NCBI GenBank assembly: GCA_003666325.1
Contig: QPIL01000123.1
Span: 1-64,000 of the forward strand
Reading direction: 5' to 3'
DNA from: Methylococcales symbiont of Iophon sp. n. MRB-2018
GTDB taxonomy: Bacteria; Pseudomonadota; Gammaproteobacteria; Methylococcales; Methylomonadaceae
Length of the DNA: 64,000 nucleotides
Each line of letters begins with the position of its first letter. The first letter of the stretch is position 1. Under the pieces are notes generated by a model. The model searched no databases. It saw only the letters and a program-made list of their open reading frames with translations, and was not told the origin of the DNA. Shown here one piece after another: positions 6,098 to 16,689 of the stretch. Both the position numbers and the translations under genes were made by a program.

Positions 6098-7366
6098 ATG
6101 ACAGAAATTACTGAAGTCCCCAGTCCTTTTTGTGGTATAGGTACGGACGATTTAGCTATTAAAGTTAATGGTGTTTCAATAAAAGTATCTAAAAATGGCT
6201 GTGCAGTAAATACAGCTGCATTTGAGCAAGCTATTACCGATACCAGTCCTAGAATTGATGGTAAGGAAGTGAGCCTTAAACAGGCGGTCACTAGAGCTTC
6301 TGAGATTTTAAGGAATGCGAATCAACCTGTCATTGGCGGTTGTGCTACAGATGTTAATGGTATGCGGGCTTTAATGGCTTTAGCTGATCGTAATGGTGCT
6401 GTGGTTGATAATATGAATTTTACTAAAGCACGAGCTAACTTTCTTGCTCTGCAAGATTCAGGCTGGATGAATACCACCTTGGCTGAGATAAAAAATAGAT
6501 GTGATTTATTTGTGGTTATCGCTTGTGATCTTGAAGTTTTTGCCCCTCGTTTTTATCCGCGTTATCTGTGGAATAAAGAATCTATGTTTCTGGATGATAC
6601 CAGCGCACGAGAGATTATATATATAGGTAAAGCACCTTCGGGTAAAGCCTCGACATCCCCTAAAAAAATAAAAGCACAAGTTTTAGAATGTGCTGATGTG
6701 GATTTACCAGAAGTGCTTGCCGTGTTAAGAGCATTAATTAAAGAAAATCTTGTTATTGCTGAACAAGTCGGTGGTATTGCAGTTGCTGATCTACAGATGA
6801 TTGCCGATAAATTAAAAGCTGCAACTTATGGTGTGGTGACATGGGCGGCTGGTGCTCTTGATTTTCCTCAGGCAGAACTCACTGTTCAGACAATTTGTGA
6901 ATTGGTTAAAGAAGTTAATGCATCAGGTGTTAGGTGTTCAGGTTTCCCTTTAGGCGGTAAAGAAGGTGATCAAACAGCAAATCAAGTTTGTGGTTGGCAA
7001 ACCGGCTATCCCGCTAGAATGCGTTTTTCTAGTGATATTCCTGAATACGATCCTTTTCTTTATGATATTAATCAAATGTTTGATAATGGCGAAGTGGATG
7101 CTTTTGTTTGGGTGCAAGCCTTTAATTCCAGTGCCACACCTCCAACAGGGGGCAGGATACCTACGATTGTCGTTGCCCGTTCTGGTATGACTTTTAAAGA
7201 GGAACCTGATGTTTTTATACCAGTAGGCACTCCAGGAATTGATCATGCAGGACATGCTTATCGTTTGGATAATGTTGTGGCTATCCGTTTAAAAAAACTC
7301 AGAGACTCAGGTTTGCCGAGTACGGCAGAAGTATTAACCGCGATTGAACAAGGATTGGTGAGCTAA
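6098..7366 (+). CDS. fhcB: Formyltransferase/hydrolase complex subunit FhcB
   Basis: This 422-residue protein is the homologue of formylmethanofuran dehydrogenase subunit B in methylotrophs. It opens the fhcBADC cluster. Recognisable segments include GGCATDVNGMRALMALADRN near residues 85-105 and ATPPTGGRIPTIVVARSG near residue 350. In aerobic methylotrophs the complex hydrolyses the formyl group received from formyl-tetrahydromethanopterin to release formate in the cytoplasm; FhcB keeps the fold but is not known to use the Mo/W cofactor of the archaeal enzyme. A plausible ribosome-binding site (AAGG) lies 8 bases upstream of ATG. fhcA starts 2 bases after its stop. This gene is strong evidence for H4MPT-linked C1 metabolism. 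Confidence 0.95.
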   Translation: MTEITEVPSPFCGIGTDDLAIKVNGVSIKVSKNGCAVNTAAFEQAITDTSPRIDGKEVSLKQAVTRASEILRNANQPVIGGCATDVNGMRALMALADRNGAVVDNMNFTKARANFLALQDSGWMNTTLAEIKNRCDLFVVIACDLEVFAPRFYPRYLWNKESMFLDDTSAREIIYIGKAPSGKASTSPKKIKAQVLECADVDLPEVLAVLRALIKENLVIAEQVGGIAVADLQMIADKLKAATYGVVTWAAGALDFPQAELTVQTICELVKEVNASGVRCSGFPLGGKEGDQTANQVCGWQTGYPARMRFSSDIPEYDPFLYDINQMFDNGEVDAFVWVQAFNSSATPPTGGRIPTIVVARSGMTFKEEPDVFIPVGTPGIDHAGHAYRLDNVVAIRLKKLRDSGLPSTAEVLTAIEQGLVS

Positions 7367-7367
7367 T

Positions 7368-9032
7368 ATGTTGACAAAACTAACTGGCGGTATCGTTTAT
7401 GACCCTGCAAATAAAGTCAATGGCAAGAAAAAAGACATTTACATTGAAGATAGACGGATTGTGTCTAAGCCAAGAAATGTTGCGCCTGACCAAGAATATA
7501 ATATCGGTGGAAAAATAGTGATGGCAGGAGCCATTGATTTACACACGCATATTGGTGGTGGTAAGGGCAATATTGCCAGAATGCTGATGCCAGAGAGTCA
7601 CCGTATTGATCCCGTAGCGCATACTAACATTAAACGTGCAGGTACAGTACATGGTATGCCCAGTACTTTTACTACGGGCTATCGTTATGCGGAAATGGGC
7701 TATACCGCAGCCTTTGAACCTGCTGTATTACCGATTAATGCCAGACAAGCACATATGGAAATGGGTGATACGCCGATGCTGGATAAAGGCGGCTATGTGA
7801 TGCTGGGCAGTGATGATTTCTTTTTACGGATGATGACAGCTAATAAGGATCAACAAGCGATTAATGATTATGTGGCATGGACACTCCGTGCTGCCCAGGG
7901 TGTGGGGATTAAAGTGGTTAATCCTGGTGGAATCAGTGCTTTTAAATTTAATCAGCGACAGCTCGACCTAGATGAAAATAATACCCATTACAATGTCACC
8001 CCTAGGCAAATTCTAAAATCCCTGGCTACAGCCATTAAGGAATTAGGCATATCGCATCCCTTGCATGTTCATGGTAGTAATTTGGGTGTGCCAGGTAATA
8101 TTCAAACCACTCTGGATTCCATTGCAGGTGTTGAAGGCTTGCCCATGCATTTAACCCATGTTCAGTTCCATAGCTATGGCACAGAAGGGGATTTTAAATT
8201 TTCTTCAGGCGGTGCAGAGCTTGCAGAAGCCATCAATAAAAATAACAACGTATCGGTCGATGTCGGTCAGATCATGTTTGGTCAAACCATTACTGCATCG
8301 GGTGATAATCAACGTCAGTATGCCAATCGCGGGATTTCATCGCCTAATAAATGGGTCTGTATGGATATTGAATGTGATGCCGGTTGTGGTCTTGTACCTT
8401 TTAAATATAAAGATCAGAATTTTGTTAATGCATTGCAGTGGGCGATTGGACTGGAAATATTTTTATTGGTTAAAGACCCATGGCGTATTTTCTTAACTAC
8501 AGATCATCCTAATGGTGCTCCTTTTACCTCATATCCGCATTTAATTCGACTGTTAATGGATAAAAGTTTTCGCAATGATATGTTGGCAACCATCCATCCT
8601 GAAGCACAAAAAATGACCACATTGGGTGCCATTGACCGTGAATATTCTATGCAGGAAATCGCTATTCTTACACGCGCCGGTGCAGCTAAAATTACTGGGC
8701 TAGAAAATCGAGGCGCATTAGGCAAAGGTGATTTTGCAGACATTACCGTTTACACTGAAAATGATAACCGTGAAAAAATGTTTGAAAAACCAGATTACGT
8801 TTTTAAAGATGGAGAATTAGTGGTTAAAGATGGTGAGGTGGTTAAAGTCGTCTGGGGAACCACCCATATAGTCAGACCTGATTATGATAAATCGATAGAA
8901 AAAGATTTGAAGAAATACTTTGACCGCTTTATGACTATGAAAGTAGGAAACTTTACCATTAGCGATGATGAAATAACCGAAGATGGGCGGGGTAGTTTGA
9001 CGGTGCATCCAACCGTGGGAGAAAAAACATGA
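7368..9032 (+). CDS. fhcA: Formyltransferase/hydrolase complex subunit FhcA
   Basis: This 554-residue amidohydrolase-fold protein is homologous to formylmethanofuran dehydrogenase subunit A. The metal-binding motif AIDLHTHIGGG places H59 and H61. Further metal-site regions are HVHGSNLGVPGN, THVQFHSYG and FLTTDHPNGAP. FhcA is the catalytic hydrolase of the complex, cleaving the formyl group from the methylofuran carrier to give formate. The gene follows fhcB by one base and its last four bases (ATGA) overlap the fhcD start, so translation is probably coupled. Length and order agree with an intact functional subunit. Confidence 0.95.
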   Translation: MLTKLTGGIVYDPANKVNGKKKDIYIEDRRIVSKPRNVAPDQEYNIGGKIVMAGAIDLHTHIGGGKGNIARMLMPESHRIDPVAHTNIKRAGTVHGMPSTFTTGYRYAEMGYTAAFEPAVLPINARQAHMEMGDTPMLDKGGYVMLGSDDFFLRMMTANKDQQAINDYVAWTLRAAQGVGIKVVNPGGISAFKFNQRQLDLDENNTHYNVTPRQILKSLATAIKELGISHPLHVHGSNLGVPGNIQTTLDSIAGVEGLPMHLTHVQFHSYGTEGDFKFSSGGAELAEAINKNNNVSVDVGQIMFGQTITASGDNQRQYANRGISSPNKWVCMDIECDAGCGLVPFKYKDQNFVNALQWAIGLEIFLLVKDPWRIFLTTDHPNGAPFTSYPHLIRLLMDKSFRNDMLATIHPEAQKMTTLGAIDREYSMQEIAILTRAGAAKITGLENRGALGKGDFADITVYTENDNREKMFEKPDYVFKDGELVVKDGEVVKVVWGTTHIVRPDYDKSIEKDLKKYFDRFMTMKVGNFTISDDEITEDGRGSLTVHPTVGEKT

Positions 9033-9925
9033 TCATCAATGGGGTAACAATTGATGCGACTTTTGCTGAAGCCTTTGCAATGAAAGCAACGCGAGCGATT
9101 ATCACTGCCCAAAATGAAAAATGGGCAATGATTTCAGCACAAGCCATGACCGGTTTTGCTACATCGGTGATTGCCTGTGGTTGTGAAGCAGGTATAGAGC
9201 GTACTTTATTACCCTCAGAAACGCCAGATGGTCGCCCTGGAGTATCTGTTTTGATTTTTGCCATGGGTGGAAAAGGTTTAGCGAAACAATTGGAAACAAG
9301 AGCTGGGCAGTGCGTATTAACTTCACCTACTTCTGCATTATTTGCCGGTATTGATGAAGGAGTGCAAATTCCTTTAGGCAAAAATCTGCGTTATTTTGGT
9401 GATGGTTTTCAAGTGTCTAAAAAAATCGCTGGCAAACGTTATTGGCGCATACCAGTAATGGACGGTGAGTTTTTAACCGAAGCAACCACAGGACGCGTTG
9501 AAGCCGTTGGTGGAGGTAACTTTTTAGTACTCGCCAAATCACAGCCGCAAGCGTTAGCTGCTTGTGAAGCAGCGATTGAAGAAATGCGCAAGTTAGCTAA
9601 TGTGATTATGCCATTCCCAGGTGGCGTGGTGCGCTCAGGTTCTAAAGTCGGTTCAAAATACCCAGCTTTAGGTGCTTCCAGTAATGATGCTTTTTGCCCC
9701 ACTTTAAAAGGTATGACCAAAACAGAATTACTGCCAGAATGTGAATCAGTCATGGAAATAGTCATTGATGGTTTAACTAAAGAAGATATTGATATAGCGA
9801 TGAGAGCAGGTATTCAAGCGGTGTGTGATCTGGGTGCAGAAGAGGGAATCCAAAGAATTAGCGCAGGGAACTATGGCGGTAAATTAGGCCCATTTCACTT
9901 TCACTTGCAGGAGATTATGGCATGA
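9029..9925 (+). CDS. fhcD: Formylmethanofuran:tetrahydromethanopterin formyltransferase FhcD
   Basis: This 298-residue protein matches the Ftr family: the N-terminus reads MIINGVTIDATFAEAFAMKA, followed by ACGCEAGIE and PSETPDGRPGV, all conserved Ftr segments. It transfers the formyl group between H4MPT and the methanofuran analogue within the Fhc complex. Full length for the family. It overlaps fhcA at its start and fhcC at its stop, in each case by ATGA, indicating one translationally coupled unit. Confidence 0.95.
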   Translation: MIINGVTIDATFAEAFAMKATRAIITAQNEKWAMISAQAMTGFATSVIACGCEAGIERTLLPSETPDGRPGVSVLIFAMGGKGLAKQLETRAGQCVLTSPTSALFAGIDEGVQIPLGKNLRYFGDGFQVSKKIAGKRYWRIPVMDGEFLTEATTGRVEAVGGGNFLVLAKSQPQALAACEAAIEEMRKLANVIMPFPGGVVRSGSKVGSKYPALGASSNDAFCPTLKGMTKTELLPECESVMEIVIDGLTKEDIDIAMRAGIQAVCDLGAEEGIQRISAGNYGGKLGPFHFHLQEIMA

Positions 9926-10734
9926 GTGCATTAACACTAACCATGAAGACTCGACTTGACCAGCGTGTTGATATGTCACCCCTAGTGTGTAATAAATTGG
10001 AAGGCGTGAGCGTTACTGACATTGCCGCCATTGAATTACAAAATGGTAAAAGCAAGATTCGTGTTGATAGTCTATTTGCTATCAAAGGTTCTGACACTAA
10101 AAACTTGGTCATTCAAGGTAGTTTTTTCAAGCTGGATTTTATTGGAAAAGAATTAGATGGAGGGACTATTACTGTTAATGGTGATGTGGGTGCTTATTTA
10201 GCACAAGAAATGAAATCTGGAACGATAAAAGTCAAAGGCAACGCAGGATTATATGCAGCTTGCGAAATGAAAAATGGTTATCTTGAAATAACAGGAGACA
10301 GTGGGGATTTTCTGGCATCAGCTTTACCCGGTAATAAACAAGGCATGAAGGGTGGTACCGTTTTAGTCAAAGGCAATGTTGGAGAACGCGCAGGTGATCA
10401 TATGCGTAGAGGGACTGTATTGATTGAAGGTAACGCGGGTGATTATTGTGGCTCCAGAATGGTCGCTGGGACGATTGCTGTTATGGGACAAACAGGTCGT
10501 TATCTAGGCTATGCCATGCGCAGAGGAACACTGTTACTTTGGAATCAACCGCAATTAACAGCAACTTTTAATGACTGTGGTTCACATACCTTGGCATTTT
10601 TACCCATATTATTTGCATCGTTCAGACCCTTAAATTCTAAATTTGCTAGTGAAACTGAGGCGTTTAACAGAGTTCAGAAATATGCAGGTGATATGTCTGA
10701 GTTGGGTCGTGGCGAAGTGTTAGTGAAAATTTGA
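9922..10734 (+). CDS. fhcC: Formyltransferase/hydrolase complex subunit FhcC
   Basis: This 270-residue subunit consists mostly of a right-handed beta-helix with repeated G-x-x-G units (DGGTITVNGDVGAY, KSGTIKVKGNAG, KGGTVLVKGNVGERAG, RRGTVLIEGNAGDYCG), the GXGXG domain shared with formylmethanofuran dehydrogenase subunit C and glutamate synthase. It scaffolds the Fhc complex. It is the last gene of the cluster; no clear terminator follows before the Uma2 pseudogene. Confidence 0.95.
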   Translation: MSALTLTMKTRLDQRVDMSPLVCNKLEGVSVTDIAAIELQNGKSKIRVDSLFAIKGSDTKNLVIQGSFFKLDFIGKELDGGTITVNGDVGAYLAQEMKSGTIKVKGNAGLYAACEMKNGYLEITGDSGDFLASALPGNKQGMKGGTVLVKGNVGERAGDHMRRGTVLIEGNAGDYCGSRMVAGTIAVMGQTGRYLGYAMRRGTLLLWNQPQLTATFNDCGSHTLAFLPILFASFRPLNSKFASETEAFNRVQKYAGDMSELGRGEVLVKI

Positions 10735-11011: not shown

Positions 11012-12712
11012 ATGAGTAATAAAAAAATTATGGATAGATCTCATTTAAGAGGTGATTTTTTTGGTGGCATAACTGCCGCTGTTGTTGCTTTGCCTTTAGC
11101 TTTAGCTTTTGGTTTGCAATCAGGAATGGGAGCTATTGCCGGTCTTTATGGTGCTATTGCCATTGGCATGATTGCCGCTTGGTTTGGAGGCACCCCCACA
11201 CAAATCAGTGGGCCAACAGGTCCTATGACGGTGGTTTCTGCTGTCGTGATTGCAAGCGTAATAGAAACAAATGGTGGTGGCATTGAATCAACATTCGGTA
11301 CCATTATGTTTATCTTTCTGCTATCAGGCATATTTCAGATTTTACTAGGCGTATTTAAAATAGGGCAATATATTCGCTATATGCCATATCCAGTGGTTTC
11401 GGGATTTATGAGCGGTATTGGCGTTATCATCATTGTGTTGCAGATATTCCCTTTTCTAGGCCATACATCACCTAAAAAAATAACTCAGATTTTCTCAGAA
11501 TTAGCTAATATCATCCATGATATAAATATAGATTCAGTGGGTTTGGCATTAGCAACCATTGCAACTATCTATATTTTCCCACGATTAACTAGATTAATAC
11601 CCAGTGCATTAATTGCATTAGTTGGACTGACTCTTATTTCTACCATTATGGGTCTTGATGTCAGAATTATTGGCGATATTCCTGAAGGTTTGCCTGCATT
11701 AAAAATAGATGCTTTGATGAATGTTGATTTTAGCCATCCTATGCTACTTATTATTCCTGCATTAACACTGGCAGCATTAGGCACAATTGACTCCTTATTA
11801 ACATCAATTGTTGCCGACAATATGACTAAAACCCAACATAACAGTAATAAAGAATTAATTGGTCAGGGCTTGGGTAATATGGGGGCAGCATTAATCGGTG
11901 GTATACCCGGTGCAGGCGCAACCATGCGTACGGTTGTAAATATTAATTCAGGTGGAAAAACTCGACTTTCTGGTGTTATCCATAGTTTGGCATTATTGAT
12001 TGTTTTACTCGGTGCTGGAGCTTATGCCAGATTAATTCCATTACCAGTATTAGCAGGTATTTTGATTACTGTGGGCATTGGTATTATTGACTATAAAGGG
12101 ATTAAACATATTGTTCATGTGCCGAAAACAGATTCAATCGTTATGCTCATTGTCTTGTCAATGACCGTTTTTGTGGATTTATTGCAAGCGGTAGCTGTAG
12201 GTATGGTACTTGCCTCAATTTTGTTTATGAAAAAAATGAGCGATATTGTTGAACAAAACAGCTCAACAGGCTCAGTTGATAACTTTGTACGTGAAGAAAT
12301 ATGGAGCGATGAAACTGATATTTCTGAACACGTTAGAGAGCAAGTTTATATTAAACATTTTGACGGCCCTATTTTCTTTGGTTTTGCCTCTAAGTTCCAA
12401 GAAATACTAGGCTCCTTACCTAAAGTGACTGTCGTTATTATTCGTATGGGGCTGGTGCCTTATATTGACCAGTCAGGTATCTACGCACTTGAAGATGCCG
12501 TGATAGCCTTGAAAAAAAGAGGAATTACTGTGTTAATAACAGGGATTCAGGATCAGCCAAAGGATATGCTTAGTAGAATTAATTTTATTCCCAATTTAAT
12601 CCCTGAAGAACATTTGTTTGATGAATTTTTACACTGTATTTCTCAATTAGAGAAGGGTGCGGTTGAGTCCGACCCTGAAACCTCAAAAAGTATAATATGG
12701 AATTTGGGATAG
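11012..12712 (+). CDS. SulP-family anion transporter with STAS domain
   Basis: This 566-residue protein has the SulP transmembrane core starting LRGDFFGGITAAVVALPLAL, with the conserved GGIPGAGATMRTVVNINSGG-type segment near residue 300, and a C-terminal cytoplasmic STAS domain from about residue 440 (VYIKHFDGPIFFGFA, MGLVPYIDQSGIYAL). SulP members carry sulfate, bicarbonate or other anions; BicA-like bicarbonate transport is possible but not shown. The ATG lacks a clear ribosome-binding site. It ends 10 bases before an ATP synthase a-subunit gene on the same strand, which is an unusual partner. Confidence 0.9.
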   Translation: MSNKKIMDRSHLRGDFFGGITAAVVALPLALAFGLQSGMGAIAGLYGAIAIGMIAAWFGGTPTQISGPTGPMTVVSAVVIASVIETNGGGIESTFGTIMFIFLLSGIFQILLGVFKIGQYIRYMPYPVVSGFMSGIGVIIIVLQIFPFLGHTSPKKITQIFSELANIIHDINIDSVGLALATIATIYIFPRLTRLIPSALIALVGLTLISTIMGLDVRIIGDIPEGLPALKIDALMNVDFSHPMLLIIPALTLAALGTIDSLLTSIVADNMTKTQHNSNKELIGQGLGNMGAALIGGIPGAGATMRTVVNINSGGKTRLSGVIHSLALLIVLLGAGAYARLIPLPVLAGILITVGIGIIDYKGIKHIVHVPKTDSIVMLIVLSMTVFVDLLQAVAVGMVLASILFMKKMSDIVEQNSSTGSVDNFVREEIWSDETDISEHVREQVYIKHFDGPIFFGFASKFQEILGSLPKVTVVIIRMGLVPYIDQSGIYALEDAVIALKKRGITVLITGIQDQPKDMLSRINFIPNLIPEEHLFDEFLHCISQLEKGAVESDPETSKSIIWNLG

Positions 12713-12722
12713 GGTTAAAGCC

Positions 12723-13520
12723 ATGCGTATGACAGAACCTCAAACAAGCAATTCTGATATAGTAGCGTTACCTTCAGAGTATTCTATTTCTGCGCCAGAG
12801 GTTATTTTTCAAATGGGTTTTTTCCCTGTTACCAATTCTCTTATCACTTCATTACTATTTACTTTTTACCTTTCTATTATTGCTATTTTTGTTTCAAATA
12901 AGATGTCAATGGTTCCTGGGAAAGTCCAGGCATTGTTTGAGATCTTTTTTGAATATATTTTTAACATGACTGAAAAAATGGCAGCTAAGAATGTTTATTC
13001 TTATTTTCCATGGTTGATGACCTTTGTCTTATTTATTTTAGTGGCTAATTTATCCGCATTGTTACCCGGTTTTGCATCTATCGGTTTGTATAAGACGTTA
13101 GAAGGTGAAGCTGATCAGGTTTTTATCCCTCTATTCAGATCAATTAATTCAGACTTGAATATGACATTGGCGTTAGCTTTAATTTCAGTTTTCATTACCC
13201 ACTTTTTTGCCATACGCTCCTTAGGTATTGTCGGTTATTTGAAAAAATGGTTTTCTTTTAAAATGTTTGGTATCTCATTGTTTGTCGGCTTGCTAGAATT
13301 AATTGCTGAATTTACTAAAATTATTTCCTTGTCCTTTCGACTTTTTGGGAACATTATGGCAGGGAAGATTTTACTAAAAACCGCTAAATCATTTTTTCCT
13401 TTTATTATCCCATTACCCTTTTATTTTTTGGAAGTGATGGTGGCTTTTATTCAATCAGCTGTGTTTATGATGTTAACACTGGTATTTATGGTTATATTGA
13501 GTAAAAAGGAAGAAGATTAA
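12723..13520 (+). CDS. atpB: ATP synthase FO subunit a (FO-only cluster)
   Basis: This 265-residue membrane protein is F-type subunit a. The essential stator Arg is present in SLSFRLFGN (R206), with Q244 in AFIQSAVFMMLTLVF corresponding to the conserved helix facing the c-ring. It provides the proton half-channels. The sequence differs from the typical gammaproteobacterial atpB and has a loop with FRSINSDLNMTLALALIS seen in divergent FO families. A second in-frame ATG is at 12729. The gene is followed by c and b but by no F1 subunit genes. Confidence 0.92.
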   Translation: MRMTEPQTSNSDIVALPSEYSISAPEVIFQMGFFPVTNSLITSLLFTFYLSIIAIFVSNKMSMVPGKVQALFEIFFEYIFNMTEKMAAKNVYSYFPWLMTFVLFILVANLSALLPGFASIGLYKTLEGEADQVFIPLFRSINSDLNMTLALALISVFITHFFAIRSLGIVGYLKKWFSFKMFGISLFVGLLELIAEFTKIISLSFRLFGNIMAGKILLKTAKSFFPFIIPLPFYFLEVMVAFIQSAVFMMLTLVFMVILSKKEED

Positions 13521-13600
13521 AGCTAGTTAATTTACCAATAATATTTGCTATTTTCATGTAATAAAATCACTCGTTTTAGATACAAAGTAAGGAGAAAAAG

Positions 13601-13804
13601 ATGGGAAATTTATCAGCGGCAATTGCCATTGCGGCAGGTGTTTTTGGTCCTGCTATAGCCATTGGAATGATTGGGATGAAAGCCATGGAAGCAATAGGAC
13701 GTAACCCCGAAGTGCAGGAAAAAATAATCCCGGTGATGCTTTTAGGTATGGCATTTGCTGAAGCCATTGCTATATATGTCTTGATTATTGCTTTAACCAT
13801 CTGA
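13601..13804 (+). CDS. atpE: ATP synthase FO subunit c
   Basis: A 67-residue hairpin of two membrane helices joined by the conserved polar loop GRNPE (residues 33-37). The ion-binding carboxylate is E54 in GMAFAEAIAIY. The residue after it is Ala, and the usual Na+-type Gln and Ser/Thr ligands are not apparent, so proton use is more likely. A strong ribosome-binding site AAGGAG lies 7 bases upstream of ATG. It is short for a proteobacterial c subunit (about 79), further evidence that this FO is divergent from the housekeeping enzyme. Confidence 0.93.
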   Translation: MGNLSAAIAIAAGVFGPAIAIGMIGMKAMEAIGRNPEVQEKIIPVMLLGMAFAEAIAIYVLIIALTI

Positions 13805-13816
13805 TTCTAATTTTCA

Positions 13817-14326
13817 ATGTTAGAAAGAATGTTCAGCGATTTTGGCGTACAACCTATTTTATTGCTTGCTCAAATTGTGAATTTTTTAATTCTTTTTCTG
13901 GTTCTAAGAAAATTTTTATATCCTCCGATATTTAAAGTTTTAGAAGCAAGAAAGAATGGTGTTCTAAAAAGTCTTGAAAACGAAGATAAAATTGAACAGC
14001 GTCTTCTTGCCATTGAAAATGAAGTGACACAAAGACTCTCAGTGGCATCCAAAGAAGCTAATAAAATAATAGATACTGCGTCAAATACAGCGGATGAAAT
14101 TATTGCCAAGGCACACCAAAAGGGACAATCTGATATTGAGCTAATGCTTGAACAAGCACAATATACTATTTCCCAGCAACAAGAAGATATGAAAAAGGAA
14201 ATGAGCACAAAATATGCTCAGCTAGTTATTGTTGGTGTTGAAAAAATAACAAATAAAGTCTTAGGCGCCGATGATCATAAACGGATTATTAGACAACAAT
14301 TGAAAGATTTAGATAATAATTTATAA
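13817..14326 (+). CDS. atpF: ATP synthase FO subunit b
   Basis: 169 residues with one N-terminal membrane helix (ILLLAQIVNFLILFLVLRKFLY abbreviated; about residues 14-36) and a long charged coiled coil to the C-terminus, as in peripheral-stalk subunit b. It follows subunit c by 12 bases. An in-frame ATG at 13829 is preceded by AGAAAG and may be the real start. In a complete operon delta, alpha, gamma, beta and epsilon would follow; here none do. The b tail is long enough to bind delta/alpha, so it may once have served, or may still serve, a full enzyme. Confidence 0.9.
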   Translation: MLERMFSDFGVQPILLLAQIVNFLILFLVLRKFLYPPIFKVLEARKNGVLKSLENEDKIEQRLLAIENEVTQRLSVASKEANKIIDTASNTADEIIAKAHQKGQSDIELMLEQAQYTISQQQEDMKKEMSTKYAQLVIVGVEKITNKVLGADDHKRIIRQQLKDLDNNL

Positions 14327-14360
14327 AATAAAGCTATGCTATGGAAAGGACAATCCAGTA

Positions 14361-14586
14361 GTGAAACTGTTAGAAAGCACTTATAAAAAAGCGGTGAGTG
14401 GCTGTAAAAAAATGTTTAAAGTCATTGCTGATAAATGGTATTCACAGAGAATTTACGGAACAATTCTTGATCAAGCAGGAGAAATTTAGACTTGATAGTC
14501 GAGATAAATTATTATATGAGGTTATAATGCGATATTTTTTAGATTTAAAGAAAAATAATTATGATACTTTTTCTAAGTTTTTATAA
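14361..14586 (+). other. Short overlapping frames after atpF; possible broken gene
   Basis: Where atpH (delta) would be expected there are only two short frames: a GTG-started one from 14361 (MKLLESTYKKAVSG..., 42 codons) and a second, offset one from GTG 14398 to 14586 (62 codons, ending NYDTFSKFL). Neither is recognisable as delta or any other family. The offset frames could be halves of one gene split by a frameshift, or noise. I see no F1 motif such as GXXXXGKT here. Confidence 0.25.
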
Positions 14587-14617
14587 AGAATTAATAGGAT
14601 AGAAGGTGTGTTATTTC

Positions 14618-15676
14618 ATGGTTAGCAATTATTTTAATAAAGAAAAAACTAATACTTTCTTAGTTGTGTTTTTGCTACTTATATTAAGTGCGTGTGGCAA
14701 TGACTATGCAGAACAAGTTCAGAAAAACTATTTACAGGTTGAAAAAAACTTAGATACGCTAAAAGATAAACTCTATTTTGGCGAGTTAACGAATACCAAA
14801 ATCGTTGAGATTTATGCCAATAAATTAGCGGCGACAAAACCTGATTTCAGACCTATTGCAGAGGCAATGTCTAAGGATGCAACCCCAAAAGGGGCTTTAT
14901 TTCAGGGTTTGCTAAAACGATTAGCTAAAGTTAACCGTAACCCTGAAAATAAAAAGCAATTCCAGCAAGCTAGCGAATCTCTTATGTCAATTGATATAGG
15001 GGCTGATCCAATAGTTTTTAATGATGCATTGATAGATTTAATCAATACCATGGCTGAATTGTCTGACGGGCAGTTGGATACGGTTAGTATTCCTAAAGAT
15101 AGTCAGGCAGCTAATGTGCGAGGTGAAGCGATTACACCAGGCAGCTATTTAGTAGGTAATCCTGGTTATGGTGAATACCGACAAAATAATTCAGGACGAT
15201 CCTTTTGGCATTGGTATGGACAGTATGCTTTTTTTAGAAGTATGTTTGGTGGAGGGTATTATAATACTAGCCCCATCTACTATAACAGATGGAATAGACG
15301 ACCACATTATTCTTATTATAATGACTATGGTAGAGGCTCTTATGGTAGTAGTTATGACCGTAGGCAGACCTCGCAACGCAATACCAGTATGCGGAATAAT
15401 GGCTATAGACCTGCCACAAAACCTAAAAAACAATATGGTTCGGTTAAAGGGCGGCAACGGGTAAGCAGTTATAGTCGACAAAGATCAACTCAATCAAACT
15501 ACGTTAGAGATAAAAGCAGCGCTGGACGACATGCAGATAAAGCCACTAATAAACGTAGTTCCAGTTTTTTTGGCGGCAAACAATCATCTAATACAGCATC
15601 TAAACGCAGCTCTAGCTTTTTTGGTAGCAGTTCGCGCAGTAGTAGTCGTAGTTTTGGTGGTTTTGGTGGTAAATAA
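14618..15676 (+). CDS. Lipoprotein with Tyr/Arg-rich middle and Ser/Gly-rich repeat tail
   Basis: From ATG 14618 the protein is 352 residues with a lipoprotein signal ending LLLILSAC, so it is probably lipid-anchored. Residues up to about 170 are helical. A Tyr/Arg/Asn-rich segment follows (SYYNDYGRGSYGSSYDRR), then a basic low-complexity tail with the unit KRSSSFFG repeated (KRSSSFFGGKQ, KRSSSFFGSSS) and an end SFGGFGGK. The tail looks disordered and could bind polyanions or peptidoglycan. A GTG start at 14606 with AGGA six bases upstream is an alternative. The family is unknown to me, but it sits 24 bases before the DUF350 gene, so the two probably act together. Confidence 0.7.
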   Translation: MVSNYFNKEKTNTFLVVFLLLILSACGNDYAEQVQKNYLQVEKNLDTLKDKLYFGELTNTKIVEIYANKLAATKPDFRPIAEAMSKDATPKGALFQGLLKRLAKVNRNPENKKQFQQASESLMSIDIGADPIVFNDALIDLINTMAELSDGQLDTVSIPKDSQAANVRGEAITPGSYLVGNPGYGEYRQNNSGRSFWHWYGQYAFFRSMFGGGYYNTSPIYYNRWNRRPHYSYYNDYGRGSYGSSYDRRQTSQRNTSMRNNGYRPATKPKKQYGSVKGRQRVSSYSRQRSTQSNYVRDKSSAGRHADKATNKRSSSFFGGKQSSNTASKRSSSFFGSSSRSSSRSFGGFGGK

Positions 15677-15700
15677 CAATACAACACAAGGTTTAAAGCG

Positions 15701-16609
15701 ATGGAAAATTTAACACAACAGATTATACTAAGTGACGCAGCATTGACCTATTATGCAATTGACTTTGTTATTCTTATGGGCTTTATGGCAACATTAAGAA
15801 TACTGGCTTCAAGTATTGCCGGCATTTCTTTAAGTGAGTTGCTAGCAAAACATGATAACTTTGCTGCGGGCATAGCCTTAGCAGGTGCTATTGTGGCAGT
15901 TGCTGTGCTGATGATGGGCGTGGTGGCTGGCGATGCCGGAACCACTTACGTTGAAGAAATCACCTTAATGCTCAGTTACGGCATAGCAGCCATGGTTTTT
16001 ATGAGTTTAACCCGTATTATTTTTGATAAGGTGGGTTTACGCCAAGTATCCATCCACGATGAAATTATGAAGGGTAATGTTGCAGCAGGTGTGGTGGATG
16101 CTTTTAACTTAATTGCCACGGCTATTATTATTCGTGCGGCAATGTCTTGGGTAGATGGTTCAACTTTTTTGGGGCTGGCTGTGGTTCTGGCTATTTTTTT
16201 ACTGTCACAAATTATTTTATTATTAGCCACGCTTTATAGAAGTGCTGTTTTTAATCAGCGACATAAGGATATAGGCAAAACATTACAAGGTGAAATTCAA
16301 GATGGAAATATTGCCTTGGCACTTCGTTTTTCAGGTTATCGTTTAGGTCTTGCTTTAGCAGTAACAGCGACTTCTGGTGTTGTGATCTATGATCCTGATG
16401 TATTAGTTTTCTCAGTTCTGGCTTGGGTGTTAATGGCCGTTGTAATTTTTATATCGCAAACCTTATTATCTATTGTATTAAGGTATATTTTATTACCTAA
16501 AGTGAATGTGGCAGAAGAAGTGGGTGAACAGTGTAATGTGGCGATTGGTTCAATCGAGGCAGCTATCTATATTGGCGTTGGCTTTACTTTTGTAGGTTTG
16601 TTTGCTTGA
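15701..16609 (+). CDS. DUF350 family membrane protein (two modules)
   Basis: 302 residues, about eight predicted membrane helices arranged as two DUF350 modules: the first from about residue 20 to 135 (SELLAKHDNFAAGIALAGAI), the second from about 155 to 300 (ISVFSVL-like helices, then EVGEQCNVAIGSIEAAIYIG). The conserved polar segment DNFAAGI of module one has its counterpart in QCNVAIGSIEA of module two. The function of DUF350 is not firmly established; it is often found with stress or phage-shock-like genes. It is downstream of a lipoprotein on the same strand. Confidence 0.8.
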   Translation: MENLTQQIILSDAALTYYAIDFVILMGFMATLRILASSIAGISLSELLAKHDNFAAGIALAGAIVAVAVLMMGVVAGDAGTTYVEEITLMLSYGIAAMVFMSLTRIIFDKVGLRQVSIHDEIMKGNVAAGVVDAFNLIATAIIIRAAMSWVDGSTFLGLAVVLAIFLLSQIILLLATLYRSAVFNQRHKDIGKTLQGEIQDGNIALALRFSGYRLGLALAVTATSGVVIYDPDVLVFSVLAWVLMAVVIFISQTLLSIVLRYILLPKVNVAEEVGEQCNVAIGSIEAAIYIGVGFTFVGLFA

Positions 16610-16689
16610 TTAAGGCAAGTGGGGGGAAATAACCCTCCTATTTCATTTACCAATAATAGATATGAGCAGGATTTAACAATGGTGAAGGT

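What the first reader, a model, noticed from the sequence alone, without database searches (positions are those of the whole stretch)
14618..16609. Lipoprotein with KRSSSFFG repeats paired with a two-module DUF350 protein
A basic, Ser/Arg/Gly-rich low-complexity tail on a lipid-anchored protein is unusual, and the partner DUF350 has no settled function. The 24-base spacing suggests a functional pair.
Basis: partly seen in the sequence, partly recalled or inferred. Interest (0 to 1): 0.5.

Follow-up and report, generated by a model that had tools for sequence, protein, structure and literature searches.

The report
Inseparable lipoprotein and DUF350 gene pair
A lipid-anchored protein with a positively charged floppy tail and a helical membrane protein are encoded side by side as an inseparable pair; they belong to a published but untested bacterial membrane-stress system, and in this close relative of a sponge symbiont the pair has moved away from the rest of that system.

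Summary
A lipoprotein (14618-15676) with two exact KRSSSFFG copies in a basic, Ser/Arg/Gly-rich tail is followed after 24 bases by a double DUF350 protein (15701-16609). The stated refuter fails. In 61 related genomes the same 10 carry both genes, adjacent. In 229 genomes drawn across the class, the same 10 hold the strong matches to both, adjacent. The 80 kept relatives (of 193) all have DUF350 directly downstream. The tail is conserved: 78 of 80 lipoproteins pass a composition test that 0 of 766 other ORFs pass.

The operon is already in print (PMC11237479): PspA, CesT/Tir-like DUF2170, DUF4178, a membrane-fused spermidine synthase, 8-TM DUF350 and a 'novel lipoprotein'. What I add: the pair stays together while each other gene can be missing nearby; in the window's genome and its sister the pair has left the rest, kept elsewhere, and sits behind SulP-F0 ATPase genes; DUF350 reads as four two-helix repeats; E. 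coli YjfM, beside DUF350 YjfL, has an unrelated body but a similar tail. The mechanism is inferred: a trans-envelope sensor/clamp for a polyamine-linked PspA system.

The parts
14618..15676 (+). Lipoprotein CDS (352 aa): signal peptide, helical domain (about aa 29-160), aromatic WYG/YSYY region (about aa 178-239), disordered basic tail
   Evidence: ORF; homologues; alignment; AlphaFold2 model
14684..14695 (+). Lipobox LSAC with the lipidated Cys26; residue +2 is Gly
   Evidence: sequence; Cys26 invariant in 39 aligned homologues; +2 residue G, S, T or K, never D, in the 78 of 80 loci where a lipobox pattern was found
15149..15334 (+). Conserved aromatic region LVGNPxYG...WxWYGxY...YxxW...YSYYxDYGR
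   Evidence: invariant and nearly invariant columns of A2; peptide patterns used by the scan
15338..15673 (+). Basic Ser/Arg/Gly-rich low-complexity tail, net charge +22 over aa 241-352, ending in GGK
   Evidence: composition; pLDDT under 50 from residue 265 to 352
15551..15574 (+). KRSSSFFG copy 1
15602..15625 (+). KRSSSFFG copy 2
15701..16609 (+). Two-module DUF350 membrane protein (302 aa)
   Evidence: Pfam PF03994; overlapping model hits at 15737, 15953 and 16184; all-helical model, pLDDT 86.4, pTM 0.85
15857..15871 (+). Hairpin repeat 1 start motif NFAAG (N53)
16076..16090 (+). Hairpin repeat 2 start motif NVAAG (N126)
16307..16321 (+). Hairpin repeat 3 start motif NIALA (N203)
16535..16549 (+). 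Hairpin repeat 4 start motif NVAIG (N279)
16621..16638 (+). Terminator-like stem-loop just after the DUF350 stop
   Evidence: consensus scan; not evidence of function
11012..14326 (+). Context only: SulP transporter and ATP synthase F0 a, c and b genes immediately upstream; the sister genome has the same neighbours
   Evidence: SulP, a and b by Pfam; c by Pfam

Best explanation
The pair is the core envelope part of the PspA / DUF2170 (CesT/Tir-like) / membrane-fused spermidine-synthase system, probably an envelope-stress device. Shown by sequence: the lipoprotein and the two-module DUF350 protein are inherited, ordered and relocated as one unit, and the rest of the system is still in the genome, on other contigs. 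Inferred: the lipoprotein, anchored by its lipid and by the +2 rule most likely in the outer membrane, reaches with its helical domain towards DUF350 in the inner membrane. Its disordered cationic, aromatic tail binds acidic surfaces (phospholipid head groups or other polyanions) and so reports or clamps envelope spacing and surface charge. DUF350 passes that state to the cytoplasmic side, where PspA, helped by the DUF2170 chaperone-like protein and by polyamine chemistry, remodels the membrane. In this genome the pair would act in trans with those partners.
For: Co-occurrence: the same 10 of 61 relatives and the same 10 of 229 class genomes hold strong matches to both, adjacent; 80 of 80 loci lipoprotein-DUF350 in order. 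Other parts: 77 of 80 loci have at least one more module gene within the held flank; SpeE 69, DUF4178-like 66, PspA 65, DUF2170 64, a channel 62 (44 plain, 18 RCK type, none with both) of 80. In trans: G000 keeps SpeE, DUF4178-like and channel on C102, and PspA, DUF2170 and AdoMetDC near the end of C27; sister G001 keeps all six together on C11 while its pair is on C22. Close SpeE fusion: the 10 pair genomes plus G002 of 61. Operon and the stress-sensing proposal: PMC11237479. Tail and helical body.
Against: No function is measured for a lipoprotein or DUF350 of this kind in the passages I read. The lipoprotein model beyond residue 165 is mostly low confidence and neither model matches a solved fold, so the mechanism rests on composition and neighbours. 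PspA is not near the pair in nine Psychromonas/Motilimonas loci, where SpeE follows, and SpeE is missing in four Thalassotalea/Thalassomonas loci; whether they lie elsewhere in those genomes was not tested. G002 has SpeE, PspA and DUF2170 without a match to the pair. Outer-membrane sorting by the +2 rule is recalled, and rules vary between bacteria; the orientation of DUF350 was not computed.
Confidence: 0.5

Rival explanations
1. The lipoprotein tail is the acceptor of a polyamine-type modification: the membrane-fused spermidine synthase, fed by AdoMet decarboxylase, aminopropylates its lysines (perhaps the conserved last one), and DUF350 handles or exports the product.
For: C-terminal GK in 76 of 80. 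SpeE in 69 of 80 loci and AdoMetDC in 10. E. coli pairs DUF350 YjfL and Ser/Gly/Arg-tailed YjfM with YjfC, annotated peptide-spermidine ligase. Pederick et al. 2023 reports that activity (title seen in a reference list). PMC11237479 mentions aminopropylation of other substrates.
Against: Four loci with the pair have no SpeE nearby; in 4 of 80 the C-terminus is RRR instead of GK; E. coli YjfM and YgiB end in GG, not GK; decarboxylated AdoMet is cytoplasmic while the tail ends outside. I saw no report of such a modification.
Confidence: 0.17
2. DUF350 is a transporter or lipid flippase built of four hairpin repeats, and the lipoprotein is its periplasmic accessory or lid; PspA and the channel respond to the ion or charge movement.
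For: Four repeats with N/A/G starts and invariant N, D and E residues; an ion-channel gene in 62 of 80 loci.
Against: No match to a solved transporter fold or sequence; no substrate indicated; no residue-level test of a path.
Confidence: 0.2
3. The pair serves the neighbouring SulP transporter (or, in this lineage, the F0 ATPase genes).
For: Same strand directly behind the F0 b gene in the window and, 63 bases apart, in the sister genome. A SulP gene also lies downstream of pair and SpeE on the same strand in five Psychromonas loci (L044, L060, L074, L087, L102).
Against: SulP is within the flank in 6 of 80 loci, the F0 a and b clusters in 1 of 80 (L025, the sister genome), while 77 of 80 hold other system genes.
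Confidence: 0.06
4. Chance neighbours.
For: None found.
Confidence: 0.005

Closest known systems
PspA - CesT/Tir (DUF2170) - membrane-fused spermidine synthase operon, 'second major group' of PMC11237479 (mSystems 2024)
   Same: 8TM DUF350, novel lipoprotein, DUF4178, TM-spermidine synthase, DUF2170, PspA and often a further small gene; the full Shewanella loci in my set hold these genes in one run
   Different: In the window and its sister the pair is detached from the other parts; in four Methylococcales loci (L026-L029) the operon is split into two divergent arms with AdoMet decarboxylase, three of them with an RCK-type channel
E. coli yjfIJKLMC (DUF2170, PspA, DUF2491, DUF350, DUF1190, peptide-spermidine ligase)
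   Same: DUF350 next to a protein with a lipobox-like site and a Ser/Gly/Arg tail (last 80 aa 57% S+R+K+G, net +9), DUF2170 and PspA in the same cluster, polyamine enzyme at the end
   Different: Single-module DUF350 (132 aa), lipoprotein body not detectably related to ours (hhalign probability 0.6%), gene order reversed (DUF350 first), ligase in place of SpeE
Band-7-SHOCT / DUF4178 / DUF350 / TM-SpeE clusters (a variant named in PMC11237479)
   Same: DUF350 match beside a distant TM-spermidine synthase, a band-7-SHOCT protein and a DUF4178 protein in G046 and G060
   Different: No homologue of this lipoprotein found in those two genomes; the DUF350 match is short with a stop codon in it

Membership tests
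DUF350 (PF03994) | Match over the curated cut-off | tested here: met
   110.5 bits against a cut-off of 26, two stretches
PspA-CesT/Tir-TM-SpeE system (PMC11237479 group 2) | Two-module (8TM) DUF350 with an adjacent lipoprotein | tested here: met
   all-helical model. The count of eight membrane spans is the paper's; no membrane-span predictor was run
PspA-CesT/Tir-TM-SpeE system (PMC11237479 group 2) | TM-spermidine synthase, DUF2170, PspA and DUF4178 present in the genome | tested here: met
   Homologues on G000 C102 and C27. The DUF4178 label is weak: 23.2 bits against a cut-off of 25 for a Shewanella homologue, no hit for two others
PspA-CesT/Tir-TM-SpeE system (PMC11237479 group 2) | All genes in one operon with the pair | tested here: not met
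   Pair on C34, others on C102 and C27; sister genome split between C22 and C11
PspA-CesT/Tir-TM-SpeE system (PMC11237479 group 2) | Lipoprotein is the 'Ctha_1186 domain' family of that paper | tested here: inconclusive
   Same neighbourhood; no Ctha_1186 sequence was compared and the paper's tables were not read
DUF1190 lipoproteins (YgiB/YjfM) | Homologous lipoprotein body | tested here: not met
   No Pfam DUF1190 hit for any of 39 homologues at E up to 0.1; hhalign against YjfM probability 0.6%
Bacterial lipoproteins | Signal peptide with lipobox and invariant Cys | tested here: met
   Lipobox pattern found in 78 of 80; L031 is cut by the contig end, and the pattern missed L032. No signal-peptide program was run

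The most novel reading that the evidence does not exclude
The conserved cationic tail ending in GK is a polyamine-acceptor tail: DUF350 systems share the principle of a lipid-anchored protein whose basic tail is extended by polyamine chemistry (aminopropylation here, spermidine ligation in E. coli yjfLMC), making a tunable positively charged brush that PspA-type membrane repair reads out. The unrelated lipoprotein bodies with like tails would be convergent substrates.
Probability: 0.1. Interest if true: 0.75.

Novelty: new variant of a known kind. Interest (0 to 1): 0.38.

Why it matters
DUF350 is widespread and its role is unsettled. Showing that the two-module DUF350 and this lipoprotein are found together, while each other gene of the published operon can be missing from the neighbourhood, points to the pair as the core to test first. 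The detached copies in two closely related genomes, one of them named a sponge symbiont, are a natural experiment: the pair stayed together and the remaining parts were kept in trans.

Tried and rejected
Viral origin: a viral-contig scan with DUF350 found no relative. Lipoprotein as a known family: no Pfam hit for the window protein, only scattered hits in homologues, EAGR_box in 9 of 39 and ARM_5 in 5 of 39, no best E under 4e-4 in the 12 families listed, read as composition or coil; NCBIfam hits all far under cut-off. Lipoprotein as DUF1190: rejected. Fold matches: Foldseek against PDB gave no E under 0.001 for either model; sequence profiles gave none for DUF350 and only chance-level coils for the lipoprotein. 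A link to the F0 ATPase genes: disfavoured, 1 of 80 loci; a link to SulP is weak but not nil, 6 of 80 loci. The extra stretch between the F0 b gene and the lipoprotein in the window (279 bases to the GTG, against 63 in the sister genome) matches the sister only in its last 33 bases, and I could not name it. Repeat control: the column shuffle breaks helix periodicity, so its threshold is lenient; the loose motif count over the family is uneven (all four motifs in 5 of 28 sequences, none in 2), so the repeat rests on profile scores and register. Papers: searches and 67 of the held open-access library; of what I opened, only PMC11237479 described DUF350 in this operon.

Full report
Observation. 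The lipoprotein ORF (ATG 14618, or GTG 14606) ends at 15676 and the DUF350 ORF runs 15701-16609 with a 24-base spacer. Pfam places DUF350 at E 7.9e-32 and nothing on the lipoprotein. KRSSSFFG occurs twice exactly; the DNA copies differ in 5 of 8 codons, all silent (comparison mine). The last 80 residues are 64% S+R+K+G, net charge +15. Across the 80 homologues fetched, 78 pass S+R+K+G of at least 50% with net charge of at least +10, and 0 of 766 other ORFs of 200 aa or more in the same loci do. The last two residues are GK in 76 of 80; the other 4 end in RRR. The tail is therefore a conserved feature; the KRSSSFFG repeat is a local version of it.

Pairing. Of 61 genomes (own plus 60 relatives), 10 hold the lipoprotein and the same 10 hold the long DUF350. 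In each the coordinates place them next to each other; in G006 the lipoprotein is cut between two contigs. Of 229 genomes spread over the class, 11 match the lipoprotein profile and 11 the DUF350 profile. The 10 strong matches in each list are the same genomes (8 families) and adjacent; the two left over are weak partial hits (G073 for the lipoprotein, E 1e-5; G103 for DUF350, E 8e-4). The DUF350 search is independent of the lipoprotein, so it carries the reverse test. The genome-contig scan found 193 relatives, of which the best 80 were kept; all 80 have DUF350 directly downstream on the same strand. Stop-to-start gaps were 6 to 123 bases in 79; in L046 my longest-ORF start overlaps, so no gap is given. 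The general DUF350 family is in 15 of 61 relatives: the 10 pair genomes, three with single-module frames (141-150 aa) and two with short matches holding a stop codon near a distant SpeE fusion.

System. Clustering of neighbours with Pfam names gives: spermidine synthase domain in a long protein with an N-terminal half I take for the published membrane domain (69 of 80 loci), a DUF4178-like protein (66), PspA (65), DUF2170 (64), a small protein I take for the ribbon-helix-helix factor of the paper (60; Pfam gave only a chance-level hit for one member), ion channels (44 plain, 18 RCK type, no locus with both), AdoMet decarboxylase (10) and an M50B peptidase (10). 77 of 80 loci hold at least one further module gene in the flank; the three without are L025 (the sister genome), L031 (contig starts inside the lipoprotein) and L095 (contig ends after DUF350). 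No other gene is constant: ten loci have SpeE but no PspA, DUF2170 or DUF4178-like gene in the flank, nine from Psychromonas or Motilimonas and L099, a Shewanella contig that ends there; four Thalassotalea/Thalassomonas loci (L054, L063, L066, L096) hold the rest without SpeE. The other loci listed as lacking SpeE or PspA (L030, L033, L039, L043) begin at or near a contig end. In five Psychromonas loci a SulP transporter follows SpeE on the same strand; SulP also precedes the pair in the window, so a SulP link is not excluded.

Detachment in this lineage. L025 is a public contig (title: Methylococcales symbiont of Hymedesmia) whose lipoprotein is 92% identical to the window's and whose sequence is identical to G001 over the 8 kb compared. 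The window's own genome carries no name. In both genomes the pair follows SulP and the F0 a, c, b genes. In G001 the other parts are together on C11: channel, DUF4178-like and SpeE one way, AdoMetDC, DUF2170 and PspA the other way. In G000 the same parts lie on a 3906-base contig (C102) and near the end of C27, as expected from a broken assembly of the same block. Nearer relatives G003, G004 and G006 have the pair behind the channel gene. So the pair most likely moved alone and the rest was kept; the order of events was not tested with a tree. Counter-case: G002 has SpeE, PspA and DUF2170 but no match to the pair; its SpeE match stops at a contig end, so loss and missing assembly cannot be told apart. 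Close SpeE fusions occur in 11 of 61 genomes, the 10 pair genomes and G002; 38 others match far less well, G046 and G060 at E about 1e-53, the rest at 1.6e-19 or worse.

Anatomy. The lipoprotein model is confident for a helical body (about residues 29-160) and mostly low from about 165 on, so the aromatic WYG/YSYY region has no reliable fold and the tail is predicted disordered. Residue +2 after the Cys is never Asp in the 78 loci with a lipobox, which by the E. coli rule (recalled) suggests the outer membrane. DUF350 folds confidently as an all-helical bundle (pLDDT 86.4, pTM 0.85). Its profile aligns with itself at N53, N126, N203 and N279; four segment pairs score 1.25, 1.18, 0.98 and 0.87 against a best of 0.84 in 200 column shuffles. 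E. coli YjfL shows the start motif twice (N44, N108), and aligns with the first half of our protein (hhalign probability 33%, E 4.7e-4). Neither model has a Foldseek match under E 0.001 among solved structures.

Comparison. PMC11237479 (I read section 19 whole and passages of others; [quoted passage not shown] That is this system. Its supplementary tables were not read. In E. coli K-12 the cluster yjfI-yjfC has DUF2170, PspA, DUF2491, DUF350, DUF1190 and a gene annotated as peptide-spermidine ligase. YjfM ends in a tail of 57% S+R+K+G with net +9 (80 aa), while YgiB, also DUF1190 and next to a ligase gene but with no DUF350 beside it, is weaker, 36% and net +8; YjfM's body is not detectably homologous to our lipoprotein. 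PMC10948618 (abstract start in a listing and passages) gives biofilm phenotypes for a DUF2170-PspA cluster in Pseudomonas aeruginosa that lacks SpeE. Li et al. 2019 on AdoMet decarboxylase could not be read.

Mechanism. Shown: obligate pairing in the genomes searched, conserved cationic tail, lipobox, helical membrane-family partner, association with PspA and polyamine enzymes. Inferred: the pair senses or clamps the envelope through the tail and passes the state to the PspA side. I give membership in the published system about 0.9, and the whole statement including the sensing/clamp mechanism about 0.5; a polyamine-acceptor tail and a transporter with lid remain open.

Verdict. A correct and useful observation of a known but unexplored operon core, in an unusual detached form; moderate interest.

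Noticed in passing
window 14327-14605: 279 bases between the F0 b gene and the lipoprotein's GTG, where the sister genome has 63; only the last 33 bases match. It holds a 62-aa GTG ORF without Pfam hit; possible remnant or insertion, unnamed.
   Followed up: partly
window 12723-14326: ATP synthase F0 genes a, c, b follow a SulP transporter without F1 genes next to them; where the F1 genes lie was not searched.
   Followed up: no
window 7368-10734: Amidohydrolase, formylmethanofuran-H4MPT formyltransferase and a GXGXG protein upstream of SulP: C1-pathway genes fitting a methylotroph.
   Followed up: no
L120 (G015) 6456-8699: The RCK-type channel gene in front of the pair is split in two by about 1.2 kb holding a reverse 172-aa ORF with a transposase-type helix-turn-helix (HTH_Tnp_4).
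   Followed up: partly
L044, L060, L074, L087, L102 (Psychromonas), downstream of SpeE: A SulP-family gene follows lipoprotein-DUF350-SpeE on the same strand in five loci; the window's pair also sits beside a SulP gene (Pfam run on the L102 copy only).
   Followed up: partly
L148 3264-5247: A DUF2491 protein with a Ser/Gly-rich stretch near its start lies just before a single-module DUF350 gene.
   Followed up: partly
L149 4619-7363: Two genes upstream of a single-module DUF350, a 397-aa protein without Pfam hit ends in a Gly/Phe-rich tail.
   Followed up: partly
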